Source: a virus
IMG/VR virus record: IMGVR_UViG_3300009285_006381
Location: 1-20,367 of that record
Length of the DNA stretch: 20,367 nucleotides
Strand: one strand, 5' to 3'
Positions 9,080 through 17,282 of this stretch are shown here, one piece after another. Below the pieces are notes generated by a model. It made no database searches and was not told the origin of the DNA. It worked only from the letters and a program-made list of their open reading frames with translations. The position numbers and the translations under genes are program-made. The number at the start of each line of letters is the position of its first letter. Position 1 is the stretch's first letter.

Positions 9080-9134
9080 ATTTCCTTTTTTAGAAATCTA
9101 TAGCATATTAATAAATAGTTCATCACAATGCGCA

Positions 9135-9206
9135 GTGGGAATAGTTCAATTGGTAGAAGGTCTCCACTTAGGGGGGCAGATTTGGGTTCGATTCCCAATT
9201 CCCACT
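9135..9206 (+). tRNA. tRNA-like gene with irregular anticodon arm
   Basis: A 72-base cloverleaf can be drawn. The acceptor stem is GTGGGAA/TTCCCAC (7 perfect pairs, extendable to 9 with the flanking CA and TG). The D arm is GTTC/GAAG with one mismatch and GG in its loop. The T arm is TTGGG/CCCAA with loop TTCGATT. CCA is not encoded. The anticodon arm is ambiguous: TCTCC/GGGGG gives a 6-base loop ACTTAG, TCTCC/GGGGC gives a 7-base loop ACTTAGG (formal anticodon TTA, C instead of U33), and GTCTC/GGGGC gives an 8-base loop. No choice puts U33 in its normal place. It may be a degenerate or divergent tRNA; no amino acid is assigned. Confidence 0.6.
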
Positions 9207-9227
9207 GGCACCTAAAAAAGGAAATAT

Positions 9228-9710
9228 ATGAAAAAGAAGACCGTTGGTGCAATTGCCAGTGAGTTACAACAAAAAGCTCCAGAGACTAGAGATCCTGTAG
9301 AGATTCAGAGAGAAATTCATAAAGATTACATAGATAACCTTTCGATAGCGGTTGATCGTGGCTTAAAAAGCATGAAGCATGACTTTTTTGTGGTTGTTAT
9401 ACTTAAAAAAGAGAAACTTCTAGAGAATGTTCTGCGTAATTATTTTGCAGAACGATCTACATGCCCAACGCCAGACTACGATCAGTCTGTATATAAATAT
9501 CACTATGATTCTGGAAACTTAGAGTATATTTGGACTATTCCAGATCGTGAGACATGTCATGTGTTTTTAAATAATGCACATCTTGTAGTTCCAGAAGAGA
9601 GATTATTATTGGAATTTGTAATAGCTTTTTCTAATGGAGAGTTAATGAGATTATGTAGAAAACTTAACGGTGAAAACATTGAAACAGGAATTATATTGGA
9701 AGGAAAATAA
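9228..9710 (+). CDS. Conserved-looking hypothetical protein, 160 aa
   Basis: A site AAGGA precedes the ATG at 9228. The protein has a charged helical N-terminus, then FFVVVILKKEKLL, a PTPDYDQSVYKYHY segment, IWTIPDRETC, and a final part ELMRLCRKLNGE. To my recollection proteins of this look accompany N4-gp56-type capsid genes, but I cannot name a function. Its stop overlaps the start of the next gene (TAATG), so it is coupled to the putative scaffold and is likely a head gene. Confidence 0.65.
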   Translation: MKKKTVGAIASELQQKAPETRDPVEIQREIHKDYIDNLSIAVDRGLKSMKHDFFVVVILKKEKLLENVLRNYFAERSTCPTPDYDQSVYKYHYDSGNLEYIWTIPDRETCHVFLNNAHLVVPEERLLLEFVIAFSNGELMRLCRKLNGENIETGIILEGK

Positions 9711-10669
9711 TGGCAATAGGTAAACCTTTAAATAGAAGTTATTACACTCAAGAAGGCCAGCAAACTGAGATTGCAGTGCCACCTCTTAATCAAGAAACTC
9801 CAATAGCAGCGGCGCCATCTACTTTGGAATTACAACCATCCAATGGAGATAGCGCCATTGCGCCTGTACCTGAAGAAGTTTCTCAAGATTTTTTCAACAG
9901 TACACAAAATGTTCACGATTCAAATGCCGACAATTTGTCGACAGTTGAAGATTCAGATCGTGACGACTTGTCACAGACTGATCAAGATGATGATGTTGAA
10001 GAAGTTGTTCCTCAACAAAAGAGAAACCAAGAGTCTCCATCATCAAAAAGAATACGTGAATTGCGCGAAGCTCAAAAGAAGGCTGAAAGAGAAAGAGACG
10101 AGCTTATGCGCATAATGCAAATGCAGCAAATGCAAAGTCAGATGCCAAAGCAGCAGTCTCCAATAGAACCAGAAGATGATGATATAAATATAGAAGATGA
10201 TGCTCTTATAGAGGGTAAGCAGTTTAGGCAGATGTATAAAGAGATGAAGCAGTTAAAAAAGCAGCTTCATAGCTATCAATCACAGTCTTCTGAGTCTATA
10301 ACTGAAGCTAGAATCAAGTCCGCATATCCTGACTTTGATAGAGTTGTATCGCAAGAAAATATAGCAATGCTTAGAGATCAATATCCTGAGATTGCAAATA
10401 CATTGAATGCATCAACTGATCTTTATAGCAAGGCAGTTTCCGCATACACAATGATTAAACAGTTTGGCATACATCAAGATCCAGTGTTGCAAAATGATCG
10501 CTTGAGGGTTGCAAGAAATACCGTTAAGCCAAGACCATTAGCATCCGTTAGTCCGCAGCAAAGTGAATCGCCATTAACAAAGGCAAATGCTTTCGCTAAC
10601 GGTGAATTTACTGAGTCTGACAGGAAAAGATTGTGGAATGAGATGAATGAAGCAAGAAAAAGAATGTAA
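9710..10669 (+). CDS. Putative capsid scaffolding protein
   Basis: The 319 residues have the usual scaffold make-up. There is a long disordered, acidic N-terminal half (DSDRDDLSQTDQDDDVEEV near residues 80-100), a Lys/Glu/Gln coiled coil (about residues 105-145), a second acidic patch, and a helical C-terminal half ending in a basic tail (MNEARKRM) that could dock to the coat protein. There is no catalytic motif. It lies between portal and major capsid, the normal place for a scaffold, and starts in a TAATG overlap. Scaffolds diverge quickly, so the call rests on composition and position. Confidence 0.65.
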   Translation: MAIGKPLNRSYYTQEGQQTEIAVPPLNQETPIAAAPSTLELQPSNGDSAIAPVPEEVSQDFFNSTQNVHDSNADNLSTVEDSDRDDLSQTDQDDDVEEVVPQQKRNQESPSSKRIRELREAQKKAERERDELMRIMQMQQMQSQMPKQQSPIEPEDDDINIEDDALIEGKQFRQMYKEMKQLKKQLHSYQSQSSESITEARIKSAYPDFDRVVSQENIAMLRDQYPEIANTLNASTDLYSKAVSAYTMIKQFGIHQDPVLQNDRLRVARNTVKPRPLASVSPQQSESPLTKANAFANGEFTESDRKRLWNEMNEARKRM

Positions 10670-11023: not shown

Positions 11024-11037
11024 GTCGATGTTTTCAG

Positions 11038-11460
11038 TTATTCGTCTTTGAATGTTATCTCTGAGTGATGCTTTTTGCAAAACCATATTACTTTTAGCCA
11101 GTCTTCTGGCTCATATGAAGTGTGGTGAGCTTCAGATTTTAGCTTTCCGCATTTACAGCATGGAAGTTTAGTTAATCTTTTATCTCTAAGGGCATTGCTA
11201 ACAGCTGTATGGGCAGATCGCTTAATAGCGTTTAACTCTCGCCATTTTGTGATAGCGTTATGTCGGACTTTTTTGCCCTTTAAGCTAGTTACCCATTTTC
11301 TATATGTTTGTTTTCCAGCTTTGCTTTTTCTGTATTTCTTGCATTGTGCATTATAACACAATTTACAGATAGATTTTGGGATATTGTTTATTTTATCCCA
11401 ATGAAAGAGAGAAAATGATTTTATTATTTTGCAGTTATTGCAAATTCTTGTGTTTTCCAT
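11038..11460 (-). CDS. HNH homing-type endonuclease
   Basis: The product has 140 residues from the ATG at 11460; the frame also opens at a GTG at 11499, but the conserved part begins at MENTRICNNC. Two zinc-binding modules are visible: C7, C10, C32, C35 at the N-terminus, and C101, C104, C128, H131 around the nuclease core. The core reads AHHTSYEPEDWLKVIWFC and then HH, the usual phage HNH arrangement. HNH enzymes nick or cut DNA and drive their own gene into related genomes. It is on the strand opposite to its neighbours, sits between endolysin and capsid gene, and is flanked by a short duplication of the endolysin end, all signs of insertion. Confidence 0.8.
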   Translation of the reverse strand: MENTRICNNCKIIKSFSLFHWDKINNIPKSICKLCYNAQCKKYRKSKAGKQTYRKWVTSLKGKKVRHNAITKWRELNAIKRSAHTAVSNALRDKRLTKLPCCKCGKLKSEAHHTSYEPEDWLKVIWFCKKHHSEITFKDE

Positions 11461-11496
11461 GGGTATATTGTATATCACTTCTAAATAAATAGCAAT

Positions 11497-11514
11497 CACT
11501 TTCCAGATGAATGA
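11497..11514 (+). repeat. Right copy of duplicated endolysin end
   Basis: CACTTTCCAGATGAATGA matches the end of the endolysin gene with one extra base and one change. Read in frame it gives HFPDE and a stop. It may be the original gene end displaced by the HNH insertion. Confidence 0.55.
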
Positions 11515-11547
11515 TATATAAACTTAGTTGCTTCTTTTTATTTCTAT

Positions 11548-11701: not shown

Positions 11702-11710
11702 TGGTATTAT
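11702..11710 (+). promoter_or_regulatory. Candidate extended -10 promoter for the capsid gene
   Basis: TGGTATTAT is a TGn extended -10 element (TATTAT) of the housekeeping sigma type. The upstream -35 is poor (TTGCTT at 19 bases or TTGTAA at 15 bases). It lies between a terminator and the tandem hairpins; the predicted start, near 11717, would place those hairpins at the very 5' end of the mRNA. Confidence 0.4.
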
Positions 11711-11720
11711 ACTTATTGTG

Positions 11721-11801
11721 ACGTACGGAGATTCGTCAACTCCTTCAACGTACCGAGAGTCGTTACCTCGTCGGACTTACGGAGATTAGTCCCCTCCTTT
11801 C
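11721..11801 (+). repeat. Three tandem 27-bp hairpin repeats
   Basis: Units at 11721-11747, 11748-11774 and 11775-11801 begin AC(G/T)TAC and each contains a 4-bp inverted arm around a 9-base loop. The arms are GGAG/CTCC in units 1 and 3 and CGAG/CTCG in unit 2, so both sides change together and pairing is kept. They lie about 100 bases upstream of the capsid start codon. The period also equals 9 codons, but no convincing gene runs through them. Confidence 0.65.
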
Positions 11802-11813
11802 GGATGTAAAATC

Positions 11814-11831
11814 AAGACTTCATCCAGTCTT
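11814..11831 (+). other. Hairpin in the capsid gene leader
   Basis: AAGACT and AGTCTT form a perfect 6-bp stem with a 6-base loop, 70 bases before the capsid start codon. No T run follows. The remaining bases up to 11901 are AT-rich, with AAGGGA as the ribosome site. Confidence 0.4.
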
Positions 11832-11901
11832 AAGGTAATAAATCTTTCAAATTAGCAACATTAGTTGTGACTTTGATTAATTATTTAACTTAAGGGAAAA
11901 C

Positions 11902-12251
11902 ATGGCTATAACTACTACAGCCCTTTTACCTGCTCCAGTACAGCAAAGTTTCAGTTTGAAATTGCTAGCGGTACCGGTTCCAAATATGATTCATAAAATT
12001 CCAGCCCTACTTAAAACTATGCCTAGGAATGGTGGAACAACTCTTCGTATGAGAAGATATTCACCTTTGGGCGCAGCAATGGTGGCACTAGGAGATACGG
12101 GCGCAACTCCTCCGGCCCAAACTCTAACTGCTGTTGACATAGATGCTACAATTCAATTTTATGGAACATACTTAATCTTGAATGAGCAATGTACATTACA
12201 AAACCAAGACCCTGTTCTTAACGAAGCAACAGTGAGATTGGGAGTGTCCCT
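11902..12251 (+). CDS. Major capsid protein, N4-gp56 family, exon 1
   Basis: Exon 1 encodes residues 1-116 and two bases of codon 117. AAGGGA lies 5 bases before the ATG. The N-terminus (LPAPVQQSFSLKLLAVPVP), the KTMPRNGGTTLRMRRYSPL segment and the QFYGTYLILNEQ strand match the layout of N4-gp56-type capsid proteins (HK97 fold), which build the icosahedral shell. Without splicing the frame continues into the intron and stops at 12282, giving a 126-residue fragment that lacks most of the fold. Joining base 12251 to 12960 gives 951 bases, 316 residues, in frame. Confidence 0.88.
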
Positions 12252-12959
12252 AAATGGCTTGGGGACTTTAAACTTTGCCTAAATACCTGGAAACTCTGAC
12301 CGCGTAATGGCGAAGACAATCAGATGCAAGCATCTAAATTGTTAACGGAGAACGATGATTACATTGAGAAATTTTTTCCTTACATTCACTTCGAAATTTA
12401 AGAATATCGCAAGATATCTTCTTATTATTTCCTGGTTTACTTATAAAAGACTCTCTAAGTTTAATCATCAATTCAGCTTGTTCTTTTTTACAGGTAAGAT
12501 GTGGGATAAGGCCTTTGCATATTGGAATAATATCGGCTTTAGAAAGAACCCATTCGTATTTCATTTTCCAATGCGGATGCTTTTTGTCGGTTCTTTTATA
12601 AACAAGGCCTCCAAAATTATTCAACAACCATCTAATCATTCTCTCATCAGTATTTACTACCATAATACGATGTCTGAAATGAGGAGCTGGACTAATATAG
12701 AAAGTTCCCTCTCCATCTACAATACCTGCAAGATAAATAAACTGTTTTTCTGTAAACATATTAAATCCTTTGTTAAAAAGTTTAGTCTTAGACTATACAA
12801 GTATAACATAGATTTAAAAAGAGTGCAGCAGCAGAGACTAAACGGTGAAGACGCAATAAAATGCGTATGCTATAGTCCAAACACCATAGAAATATGGTGA
12901 GAGGGGATTAACAAGACCCTCCGCCTAAAGTGAATTTAGGTCATAAAAGTAATAGATTG
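12252..12959 (+). mobile_element. Group I intron in the major capsid gene
   Basis: The intron has 708 bases. P1: exon GTCCCT (12246-12251) pairs with GGGGAC (12261-12266), with the required U-G pair at the cut. P10: CTT just before that guide pairs with AAG at the start of exon 2. P3: ACCG (12299-12302) with CGGT (12843-12846). P4: GACAAT with ATTGTT; P5: AGATG/CATCT. P7: GACTA (12836-12840) with TAGTC (12873-12877) inside classic R and S elements. P8: ACGCA/TGCGT. P9: CACCATA/TATGGTG with a GAAA loop, then two more hairpins (GAGGG/CCCTC, CCTAAA/TTTAGG). The last base is G (12959). It carries a LAGLIDADG gene on the opposite strand. Confidence 0.92.
12334..12759 (-). CDS. LAGLIDADG homing endonuclease, antisense within the intron
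   Basis: The 141 residues have one LAGLIDADG helix, LAGIVDGEGTF at residues 10-20, with E17 as the likely catalytic acid. One motif implies a homodimer that cuts a near-palindromic site. The following parts (HFRHRIMVVNTDERMIRWLL, FGGLVYKRTDKKHPHWK, the EW.L pattern) fit the family fold, and the length is normal for a single-motif enzyme. AAAGGA lies 6 bases before the ATG, so it has its own ribosome site on the minus strand. It is transcribed against the capsid mRNA. Its last codons and TAG stop overlap the P4-P5 strand of the ribozyme. Confidence 0.88.
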   Translation of the reverse strand: MFTEKQFIYLAGIVDGEGTFYISPAPHFRHRIMVVNTDERMIRWLLNNFGGLVYKRTDKKHPHWKMKYEWVLSKADIIPICKGLIPHLTCKKEQAELMIKLRESFISKPGNNKKISCDILKFRSECKEKISQCNHRSPLTI

Positions 12960-13560
12960 AAGACAAACAGAGGATCAACTAACAAGAGATATGTTGGCTG
13001 GTACAGCGGCGTTTGTAAACTGCGTTGGCGGAGTGAACGGTGACAACCCTACAGAATTAACAGAAACTGACGTTGATGATATAACACGTTCTTTATTGGG
13101 AAGTGACGCTTATACCGTGCTTGACAATATTGAGGGTGCAGACAAGATGGGAACAGCACCTGTAAAAGATGCCTACTTTGCTCTTTGTCATACAGATTTG
13201 ACAAAAGATATGAACAGAGTGAATAGCTTCCAACACAAGAATCAATATCCATCTCCTACAGCAGCATTACGTTCTGAGTGGGGAGCAATTGGTAACTTGA
13301 GATTCTTAGTTTCATCTATTGGATCTTCAGTTGCGAATGCATCTGCTTTGGGCGCTAGAGTGTATAATATCTTCTGTGTTGGCATGGAAGCATATGCATG
13401 TATAGAGCAAGACGGATATAGCGCATCTTTCATATATAGACCACCTCTATATGATGGACCACTCGCATTAAACGCAAGTGTTGGCTACAAGTTCGCTGAA
13501 GTACCGCGTATATTGAACGATTTATGGATACTAAACCTACGTTGCACATTGGCAAACTAA
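12960..13560 (+). CDS. Major capsid protein, N4-gp56 family, exon 2
   Basis: Exon 2 completes the Leu-117 codon (CT plus A) and continues RQTEDQLTRDMLAGTAAF, a typical continuation of this family after the GVSL that ends exon 1. It encodes residues 117-316. Visible features are the long helix TEDQLTRDMLAG, then ALRSEWGAIGNLRFLVSS, a usual hallmark region of these capsid proteins, and a C-terminal DGPLALNASVGYKF strand pair. An ATG at 12991 lies inside the exon, but starting there would remove part of the helix. The next gene starts 9 bases after the stop, with GGAG overlapping the gap. Confidence 0.88.
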
Positions 13561-15541: not shown

Positions 15542-16567
15542 ATGGCAGATTCTTCACTAGCTGCGATACGTACCAAAGTTCGCAGACTGACTCGTAGCTT
15601 GTCTCCGGCACAATTAACCGATGCCCAGATAGATGAGTATATAAATACATTTGTTTTGTATGATTTCCCAGAACATTTAAGACTATCTAATTTAAGAAAA
15701 TCATTTCAGTTTTTTACTGAGCCGTATGTGGATGTTTACGATCCTGATTCTTATGGTGTCAATACACCCTTATATCAATTTAATCAAAAGAATATAACAG
15801 TTCATCCACCTTTTTATGTGGCTGGATATCAGGCTACATTCTTAGAATCTAGAGAGATTCTTTATGGAATGTATCCAAAGGTATCTACTATATTTCAAAT
15901 TGGTTCAGGATCTAATCCTCCTGTGTTGCAATATACTGGCGTGTTGCCAAACTTAAATCCAGGTACTTGTATTATTAGGGGCAATGTTGCTTTCAGTTCC
16001 ATTGACGTTAATGGTGATGGCTTAGTTATGGCAGATTTTCCATTTAATGCAGAATTTGGTCAACTTGGTGTTCCTGGTCAACCAGTTGTTGGACCTTTAG
16101 ATCCAAACAACTATATAAATTATGTTACTGGCGACTATACAGTTACTTTCGCAACAGCTCCAGAGCAAGGTGCGGCTGTAAATTGTCAGTATGTGCCAGT
16201 ACAAACATCTAGACCTACAACTGTATGTTTCTTTGATGGAAGTTTTATAGTAAGACCAGTGCCAGATCAATCATATCCAATCAATATGGAAGTATATGTT
16301 AGGCCTACAGAGTTGTTAGTTGCCGGTGGATCTCCAGAGCTTGAAGAGTGGTGGCAGTATATAGCGATCGGCAGCTCGCTGAAAGTTTTCCAAGACCGTA
16401 TGGATATGGAAAGTGTTGCTCTATTAATGCCAGAGTTCAAAAAGCAAGAATGTTTGATTAACCGAAGAACTATAGTACAATATGCAAGCCAGCGTACTGC
16501 CACCATATATACTGAGAACAATAATCAAACTATTCCATTTGGACCTAACAGTAATGGTGGTTTTTAA
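15542..16567 (+). CDS. Putative head-tail adaptor or tail protein, 341 aa
   Basis: AGGAG precedes the ATG. The N-terminus is helical (SSLAAIRTKVRRLTRSLS, then LTDAQIDEYINTFVLYDFPEHL), as in head-to-tail adaptors, and the rest is beta-rich with YINYVTGDYTVTFATAP and a VCFFDGSFIVRPVPDQSYP strand region. The last third has a helical PELEEWWQYIAIGSSLKVFQDR segment. The gene lies between the capsid and tail-hub genes where adaptor (P22 gp4-like) and nozzle proteins are expected. No firm family match is claimed. An HNH gene follows directly. Confidence 0.6.
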   Translation: MADSSLAAIRTKVRRLTRSLSPAQLTDAQIDEYINTFVLYDFPEHLRLSNLRKSFQFFTEPYVDVYDPDSYGVNTPLYQFNQKNITVHPPFYVAGYQATFLESREILYGMYPKVSTIFQIGSGSNPPVLQYTGVLPNLNPGTCIIRGNVAFSSIDVNGDGLVMADFPFNAEFGQLGVPGQPVVGPLDPNNYINYVTGDYTVTFATAPEQGAAVNCQYVPVQTSRPTTVCFFDGSFIVRPVPDQSYPINMEVYVRPTELLVAGGSPELEEWWQYIAIGSSLKVFQDRMDMESVALLMPEFKKQECLINRRTIVQYASQRTATIYTENNNQTIPFGPNSNGGF

Positions 16568-16589
16568 TAATAAAAACTATAGGGATTAC

Positions 16590-17282
16590 ATGAAAAAAAT
16601 TTGTCGCATATGCAATGTTATCTTGGATTCGAGTAATTATATTATTGTTAAAAAGAAATATGTTAGATCTATCTGCAGAAAATGCAAAAGCAGGATGGCG
16701 GTAGAAAATGCTAGAAAACTAGGTAGTCTTAGAAGAAAATATGCAAATGAGTATGCGAGACGAGTTGGAAGAGTAAGAGAATATCCATGCGAACAATGTG
16801 GAAAACTTTGTTATAAAAAGTGCTCTAAAGCTTTTTGTTCTGATCAATGTAGATTTTTATCTTATGTTAATGTTGCAGATTCTTGTTGGATTTGGACTGG
16901 TGGAATAAATAGACGTGGATATGGTAAATTTTCTCTTTTCCCTATAAAATCTATTTCTGCTCATAGAGCTTCTTATATTTTATTTAATGGAGAGATTCCT
17001 GAAGGAAAGTGTGTTTGCCATCAATGTGACAATCCTAGGTGCGTTAAACCTGCGCACTTATGGATTGGAACTACGCAAGAAAATACGCAGGATATGATTA
17101 ATAAGGGAAGAAGTTTGCACGGTGAAAATCATTTAAAAGCAAAAATAACAAAAGAAGATGTATTAAAGATACGAGAACTAGGATCTAAAGGCATGGCTCA
17201 GTGGAAAATTGGGGAAATGTTTAATTTAACTGCTGGTCATGTTAATAATATAATTAAAAAAAGAGCGTGGCAGCACGTTTAA
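16590..17282 (+). CDS. HNH endonuclease with zinc fingers and C-terminal DNA-binding region
   Basis: The ATG at 16590 has TAGGGAT upstream; the frame is open further up only inside the preceding gene. Order of parts: zinc site C5, C8, C29, C32; a second Cys cluster with C67, C70, C83, C87; the HNH core with AHRASY (H125) and CHQCDNPRCVKPAHLWIGT (H144, N148, H156), of the HNH_3 type; then a helix-turn-helix-like tail at about 186-225 (ITKEDVLKIRELGSKGMAQW). This is a freestanding homing-type enzyme placed between two tail genes on the same strand. Its own stop overlaps the ribosome site of the next gene, a neat insertion. Confidence 0.87.
   Translation: MKKICRICNVILDSSNYIIVKKKYVRSICRKCKSRMAVENARKLGSLRRKYANEYARRVGRVREYPCEQCGKLCYKKCSKAFCSDQCRFLSYVNVADSCWIWTGGINRRGYGKFSLFPIKSISAHRASYILFNGEIPEGKCVCHQCDNPRCVKPAHLWIGTTQENTQDMINKGRSLHGENHLKAKITKEDVLKIRELGSKGMAQWKIGEMFNLTAGHVNNIIKKRAWQHV

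What the first reader, a model, noticed from the sequence alone, without database searches (positions are those of the whole stretch)
12252..12959. Group I intron splits the major capsid gene and carries its LAGLIDADG endonuclease on the antisense strand
Splice sites can be set to the base: P1 (GTCCCT with GGGGAC), P10, terminal G, and a restored frame GVSL-RQTEDQLTRD in the middle of a conserved helix region. R/S elements, P3, P7, P8 and a GAAA-capped P9 are visible. The endonuclease has its own ribosome site on the minus strand. Antisense endonuclease genes are known mainly from nuclear rDNA introns; in a phage capsid gene this is unusual. It means the enzyme can be made independently of the capsid transcript, and its mRNA would be complementary to the unspliced pre-mRNA.
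Basis: partly seen in the sequence, partly recalled or inferred. Interest (0 to 1): 0.8.

Follow-up and report, generated by a model that had tools for sequence, protein, structure and literature searches.

The report
Capsid-gene intron with reversed endonuclease gene
The major capsid gene of this uncultured phage is interrupted by a self-splicing-type group I intron whose DNA-cutting homing enzyme is encoded on the opposite strand; relatives show that this reversed layout is the usual one in an environmental phage family whose capsid gene is a hotspot for such introns.

Summary
Removing 12252-12959 restores a 316-aa major head protein; the best 80 viral relatives read continuously across the same join. 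Rfam's Intron_gpI scores only 23 bits (cut-off 50), but 23 distinct introns at this same codon share P1, P3, P6, P7, P8, P9 and P9.1 with strong covariation (96% of cells paired, 32 of 41 pairs changed on both sides, 0/500 shuffles as good). P1 covaries across the exon-intron border. ORF 12334-12759 (minus) is a single-motif LAGLIDADG endonuclease with an I-CreI-like fold, in the P6 loop, with its own Shine-Dalgarno.

'Unusual in a phage capsid gene' needs two corrections. Mycobacteriophage LittleE is a published precedent (spliced capsid intron, bottom-strand LAGLIDADG). In this phage family antisense is the rule: 52 of 58 LAGLIDADG genes inside capsid introns, and all at this codon, under purifying selection in relatives. 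The capsid gene carries introns at many positions, up to four per gene. Two phages with identical exon 1 and ribozyme core carry different endonuclease/P6 cassettes, so the endonuclease moves independently of the ribozyme. No minus-strand promoter was identified. Splicing, expression and cleavage are inferred.

The parts
11902..12251 (+). Major capsid gene, exon 1 (residues 1-116 and two bases of Leu117)
   Evidence: PHROG 1357 major head protein; contiguous relatives
12252..12959 (+). Group I intron, 708 nt, ending in the terminal G
   Evidence: Restored frame, empty sites in relatives, covarying core in 23 introns at the same codon, weak Rfam hit
12960..13560 (+). Major capsid gene, exon 2 (last base of Leu117 to stop)
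12334..12759 (-). LAGLIDADG homing endonuclease gene, 141 aa, single motif LAGIVDGEG, in the P6 loop
   Evidence: PHROG 5046 E 2.7e-20, family profile hits I-MsoI 5e-26, AlphaFold2 pLDDT 91.7, I-CreI best solved match
12766..12771 (-). Shine-Dalgarno AAAGGA, 6 nt before the endonuclease ATG
   Evidence: sequence
12246..12266 (+). P1: exon GTCCCT (12246-12251) with guide GGGGAC (12261-12266), U.G at the splice site
   Evidence: covaries across the exon-intron border in relatives
12273..12279 (+). P3 5' strand CTTTGCC, pairs with 12844-12850
   Evidence: 6 of 7 pairs change on both sides
12325..12333 (+). P6 5' strand TGC..GCAT, pairs with 12823-12830; the endonuclease gene lies in its loop
   Evidence: 7 of 7 pairs change on both sides
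12823..12830 (+). P6 3' strand
12836..12840 (+). P7 5' strand GACTA, pairs with TAGTC 12873-12877
   Evidence: 3 of 5 pairs change on both sides
12844..12850 (+). P3 3' strand GGTGAAG
12851..12866 (+). P8 hairpin (12851-12855 with 12862-12866)
   Evidence: 5 of 5 pairs change on both sides
12873..12877 (+). P7 3' strand TAGTC
12882..12899 (+). P9 hairpin CACCATA-GAAA-TATGGTG
   Evidence: 5 of 6 counted pairs change on both sides; strong local fold
12901..12921 (+). P9.1 hairpin (12901-12905 with 12917-12921)
   Evidence: 4 of 5 pairs change on both sides
12924..12940 (+). P9.2 hairpin (12924-12929 with 12935-12940); pairs in the window, variable in relatives

Best explanation
A mobile group I intron sits in the major capsid gene. 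In the capsid pre-mRNA it folds through P1-P10, excises itself and joins Leu117 to Arg118. The endonuclease is read from a separate minus-strand transcript, acts as an I-CreI-like homodimer, and cuts intron-less capsid genes of co-infecting relatives at or near the Leu117/Arg118 junction; repair then copies the intron in. The antisense endonuclease with its P6 stem is a cassette that can be exchanged between ribozyme cores. Shown by sequence: anatomy, join, RNA covariation, protein fold, purifying selection on relatives, conserved site and orientation, cassette exchange. Inferred: splicing, minus-strand expression, cleavage, homing.
For: Exact join and empty sites; 40 viral stretches interrupted at the same codon, found by a pattern blind to intron sequence; covariation incl. 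P1 across the exon border; LAGLIDADG fold and profile; dN/dS about 0.1-0.2 in most close pairs of antisense relatives; 52 antisense to 6 sense inside capsid genes; same exon 1 and core but different endonuclease/P6 in L096 and L116; synonymous exon footprint in intron-bearing alleles.
Against: No promoter above chance on the minus strand. Rfam score below its cut-off. P4/P5 not formally counted. The window's endonuclease is only 37-39% identical to its nearest relatives, so selection on this very copy is not measured. No RNA or enzyme data.
Confidence: 0.87

Rival explanations
1. The intron splices, but this endonuclease copy is no longer functional: the 141-aa single-motif gene is a decaying remnant of the 310-320-aa two-domain form seen in relatives.
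For: The family holds all stages: two-domain genes in introns near 1200 nt, an 86-aa remnant (L101), and ORF-less introns of 213-253 nt.
Against: The window gene groups with single-motif genes of L096/L123, not with either half of the two-domain genes; full I-CreI-like fold at high confidence with the motif intact; it has a ribosome site. Single-motif LAGLIDADG enzymes work as homodimers (established for I-CreI).
Confidence: 0.12
2. The antisense orientation is a frozen accident: the ancestral endonuclease entered P6 loops backwards once and spread by homing between sites, with no advantage of the orientation itself.
For: Only about 4 orientation changes are needed on the domain tree and 2 are forced; many copies are near-identical.
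Against: Antisense genes occupy several capsid positions and several endonuclease lineages, and unrelated ribozymes share the layout (LittleE; a hidden antisense LAGLIDADG in the minor capsid gene of Gordonia phage Barsten).
Confidence: 0.45
3. The insertion is not an intron but an assembly artefact or an element that disrupts the capsid gene.
For: Rfam score is sub-threshold; in-frame hidden endonuclease insertions that are not introns are published for a phage methylase (PMC11855218).
Against: The capsid frame stops inside the insertion (ORF ends 12282); covariation spans the exon-intron border; the same insertion type occurs in 40 other stretches from many samples.
Confidence: 0.02

Closest known systems
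Mycobacteriophage LittleE major-capsid intron (Pope et al. 2013, PMC3706429; JF937101)
   Same: Group I-type intron in a phage major capsid gene, with a LAGLIDADG gene on the opposite strand; its endonuclease is found by the family profile (E 1.8e-9). Splicing there was shown by RT-PCR and protein sequencing (PMC3706429).
   Different: Unrelated capsid gene in our search (no capsid match) and no significant core match; single case, 819 bp.
I-CreI / I-MsoI single-motif LAGLIDADG homing endonucleases
   Same: Same fold, same motif, I-MsoI is the best profile match.
   Different: From algal organelle rDNA introns (general knowledge); motif carries E (LAGIVDGEG) where I-CreI has D; sequence identity about 20%.
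Antisense endonucleases of nuclear rDNA group I introns (Didymium L2066, S956; PMC9548176)
   Same: Endonuclease gene on the strand opposite to ribozyme and host gene.
   Different: His-Cys box enzymes in P9, eukaryotic nucleus, separate RNA polymerase; here LAGLIDADG in P6 of a phage protein gene.
Stenotrophomonas phage StenR_269 endonuclease next to its capsid gene (OR838459)
   Same: Closest endonuclease in isolated phages (36.6%), directly upstream of a related capsid gene.
   Different: Annotated as a free-standing sense gene with an uninterrupted capsid gene.
Rfam Intron_gpI (RF00028)
   Same: R/S, P7 and P9 elements matched.
   Different: Score 23.2, below the cut-off of 50; 17 related loci incl. 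LittleE also missed.

Membership tests
Group I intron | 5' splice site in P1 with U.G pair to an internal guide | tested here: met
   GTCCCT/GGGGAC; invariant U.G in 23 of 23, other P1 positions covary
Group I intron | P3-P8 domain with P7 holding the guanosine-binding pair, and P6 | tested here: met
   P3, P6, P7, P8 covary; G12836-C12877 pair present
Group I intron | P4 and P5 helices | not tested
   Pairings can be drawn by eye but the alignment is shifted there; left out of the count
Group I intron | Last intron base G | tested here: met
   12959 G; the G-anchored pattern found 40 interrupted relatives
Group I intron | Guanosine-dependent splicing | not testable with these tools
   Needs in vitro splicing or RT-PCR
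Rfam Intron_gpI detection | Score at or above the curated cut-off (a detection limit, not a defining feature of the class) | tested here: not met
   23.2 of 50 bits; the published LittleE intron is missed too
LAGLIDADG homing endonuclease | LAGLIDADG motif with acidic active-site residue | tested here: met
   LAGIVDGEG; G12, D15, G18 conserved or nearly so
LAGLIDADG homing endonuclease | Alpha-beta-beta-alpha-beta-beta-alpha fold | tested here: met
   AlphaFold2 model and Foldseek to I-CreI, prob 1.00, TM 0.73-0.78
LAGLIDADG homing endonuclease | Pfam LAGLIDADG cut-off | tested here: not met
   16.9 of 23.1 bits for the window copy; relatives pass (54.5 and 27.7 bits)
LAGLIDADG homing endonuclease | Cuts the intron-less target | not testable with these tools
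   Needs purified protein
PHROG 1357 major head protein | Both exons match in order with a continuous join | tested here: met

The most novel reading that the evidence does not exclude
The major capsid gene of a widespread uncultured phage family is a standing battleground for group I introns that current RNA models miss. Antisense placement of the LAGLIDADG gene is actively favoured there, for instance because it uncouples enzyme production from the strong late capsid transcript, and antisense endonuclease/P6 cassettes shuttle between ribozyme cores and insertion sites.
Probability: 0.35. Interest if true: 0.75.

Novelty: new member of a known kind. Interest (0 to 1): 0.55.

Why it matters
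Phage intron endonucleases are mostly studied as sense genes governed by the host transcript. Here is a large set where the antisense layout is the rule, at one fixed codon of an essential structural gene, with natural empty sites, ORF-less introns, one- and two-domain genes and a natural cassette swap. That makes two old questions testable: how an endonuclease comes to occupy an intron, and how an antisense endonuclease is expressed without spoiling splicing. It also shows that routine Rfam annotation misses these introns, so capsid genes of this family will be called as broken or double genes.

Tried and rejected
Rfam at gathering threshold found no intron here or in 17 related loci; a permissive search gave the partial hit. 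Nucleotide search of isolated phages with the whole capsid region: nothing. A protein-pattern scan with the endonuclease alone found no relative; what worked was a capsid exon-2 pattern preceded by G. Promoter/terminator scan: no more than in shuffles. Host: relatives in bacterial genome bins are short contigs from four unrelated bins, so no host is assigned. An exon-2-like copy beside the endonuclease in the P6 loop is clear in the two-domain lineage (up to 14/15) but not in the window (9/15, shuffle p 0.52), so it is not used for the window. Treating 52 to 6 as independent events was rejected: many copies are related. Two early scripts returned empty tables because of an invalid BLAST option (in part, 52); redone.

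Full report
WHAT IS THERE. The window is a 20,367-base viral contig with a P22-like portal, terminase and tail genes, nearly all on the plus strand. Exon 1 (11902-12251) and exon 2 (12960-13560) join to a 316-aa protein. Each exon hits PHROG 1357 major head protein, in order. A scan of IMG/VR with the joined protein gave 594 relatives; the best 80 (75-84% identity) are uninterrupted and read through Leu117-Arg118 in frame. The join is therefore set by homologous empty sites.

GROUP I IDENTITY. Rfam Intron_gpI matches only weakly (23.2 bits, E 0.0015, cut-off 50). To test structure independently I searched IMG/VR for the exon-2 codons preceded by G, where an uninterrupted gene has T. This gave 40 stretches; all encode this capsid protein from residue 118 on, interrupted at this codon (in some the contig ends before exon 1). 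Thirty-four complete introns, the window included, are 25 distinct sequences of 213 to 1207 nt. With the P6 loop removed, 23 align over the whole core. A named structure of P1, P3, P6, P7, P8, P9 and P9.1 has 96.1% of cells paired (at most 47% when slid), 32 of 41 pairs with changes on both sides, and 210 such cells against 58.8 in shuffles, 0/500. The structure was drawn by me on these sequences, so the percentage paired is somewhat favoured; the both-side changes are the stronger evidence. P3 in the window is CTTTGCC/GGTGAAG; relatives have CCGAACC/GGTTTGG, CTTGACC/GGTCGAG or TCTTCTC/GAGAAGA. P1 covaries across the exon border: exon GTCCCT, TTCCCT, ATCCCT or GTCGCT goes with the matching guide. 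The core profile also hits an isolate, Roseobacter phage CRP-118, between two ribonucleotide reductase fragments.

EXON FOOTPRINT. Intron-bearing alleles end exon 1 in .TC[CG]CT in 34 of 34 cases, intron-less junctions in 26 of 148. Arg118 is AGA in 40 of 41 against 30 of 148. The changes are synonymous. Pairing needs of P1 and P10, co-conversion during homing, or both would give this; the data do not separate them.

THE ENDONUCLEASE. The minus-strand ORF 12334-12759 hits phrog_5046 (E 2.7e-20; its label 'HNH endonuclease' does not fit the fold). It has LAGIVDGEG, an AAAGGA ribosome site 6 nt from ATG, a confident AlphaFold2 model (pLDDT 91.7) and I-CreI as best solved match. A family profile hits I-MsoI at 5e-26. 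The 152-codon open run is above all 1000 shuffles of the intron. Among related antisense genes dN/dS is about 0.1-0.2 for most close pairs, so the antisense frame is the selected one. The window's own copy has relatives only at 37-39% identity, so for it this is indirect.

ORIENTATION. With the family profile, LAGLIDADG genes inside the capsid gene are antisense in 52 cases and sense in 6 (a few are identical copies from different contigs). At codon 117 all are antisense. The sense cases lie in introns near codons 89-106 (L109, L121, L154, L170) and near codon 14 (L185, L223). Copies upstream of the gene are sense, except L090 and L115, which are codon-117 introns cut by a contig end. On a tree of the domains the fewest orientation changes is 4, with 2 forced by well-supported branches. 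So antisense is old and persistent rather than 52 separate events, but it spans several endonuclease lineages and several capsid positions.

CASSETTE EXCHANGE. L096 and L116 have 100% identical exon 1, 5' core and 3' core and 98% identical exon 2, but different P6 stems and different endonucleases: a 690-nt intron with a single motif against a 1201-nt intron with two domains. The window pairs an L117/L111-like 5' core (90-92%) with an L096-type single-motif gene and P6 stem. The endonuclease with its P6 stem thus moves between ribozyme cores. The 5' core being more alike than exon 1 (92% against 68% for window and L117) fits horizontal transfer.

HOTSPOT. The 3' core profile finds similar introns at many other capsid positions, on the capsid strand. 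The sample is not random, so the fraction is only indicative.

KNOWN WORK. Pope et al. 2013 (PMC3706429) describe LittleE, a spliced capsid intron with a bottom-strand LAGLIDADG frame: a direct precedent, which makes the window a new member of a known kind. Antisense endonucleases in nuclear rDNA introns are described in PMC9548176. A survey of this phage family or its orientation bias did not turn up in the held library, which is incomplete.

MECHANISM AND LIMITS. Most likely the intron self-splices, the enzyme is made from a minus-strand RNA, cuts empty capsid alleles and drives homing. Shown by sequence: anatomy, conservation, covariation, fold, selection on relatives, cassette exchange. 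Not shown: splicing, transcription of the minus strand (no promoter above chance), cleavage, homing, or any regulatory effect of antisense pairing.

Noticed in passing
L158 (codons 51, 79, 170), L156, L093 (codons 117 and 274), L084: Some capsid introns carry a small sense-strand ORF instead of an endonuclease; its C-terminus (QPERSKRED...MRCSEHCGNTVR) is translated from the ribozyme core itself. One (L158 codon 79) hits Pfam DUF551, E 1.7e-8: possible non-endonuclease cargo.
   Followed up: partly
L246:2001-2417 (Gordonia phage Barsten, NC_055856, about 9586-10002): An unannotated LAGLIDADG frame runs antisense inside the annotated minor capsid/head morphogenesis gene; the relative BobBob matches the gene at 95% in two pieces over a span about 800 bp shorter, as if lacking an insertion.
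   Followed up: partly
11024-11530: A second endonuclease gene (HNH, phrog_2340, 11038-11499) also lies on the minus strand, between an M15 peptidase gene and the capsid gene. The close relative L005 has about 500 bp less there and also lacks the capsid intron.
   Followed up: partly
11704-11839: A 137-nt stretch upstream of the capsid gene is 87% identical in L005 and lies in a region that folds better than all shuffles (z -4.6); a possible structured 5' leader. No Rfam family fits.
   Followed up: partly
9134-9207: tRNA gene with an odd anticodon loop (ARAGORN: four-base anticodon ctta, no amino acid assigned). L005 has a tRNA in a similar upstream place, called Leu.
   Followed up: partly
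P6 loop of two-domain introns (L085, L086, L087, L110 and others): Next to the endonuclease start lies a copy resembling the first 15 bases of capsid exon 2 (up to 14/15, shuffle p below 0.001); the intron core itself also resembles it (L114 13/15). It may mark how the endonuclease entered the intron.
   Followed up: partly
L083 (Roseobacter phage CRP-118, OR420741, about 35068-35185): An unannotated group I core of the same type, apparently without ORF, lies between two ribonucleotide reductase fragments.
   Followed up: partly
16482-17282: A sense-strand HNH endonuclease gene (HNH_3, E 2e-9) overlaps the end of a tail gene; relatives in about 15 other fetched loci.
   Followed up: no
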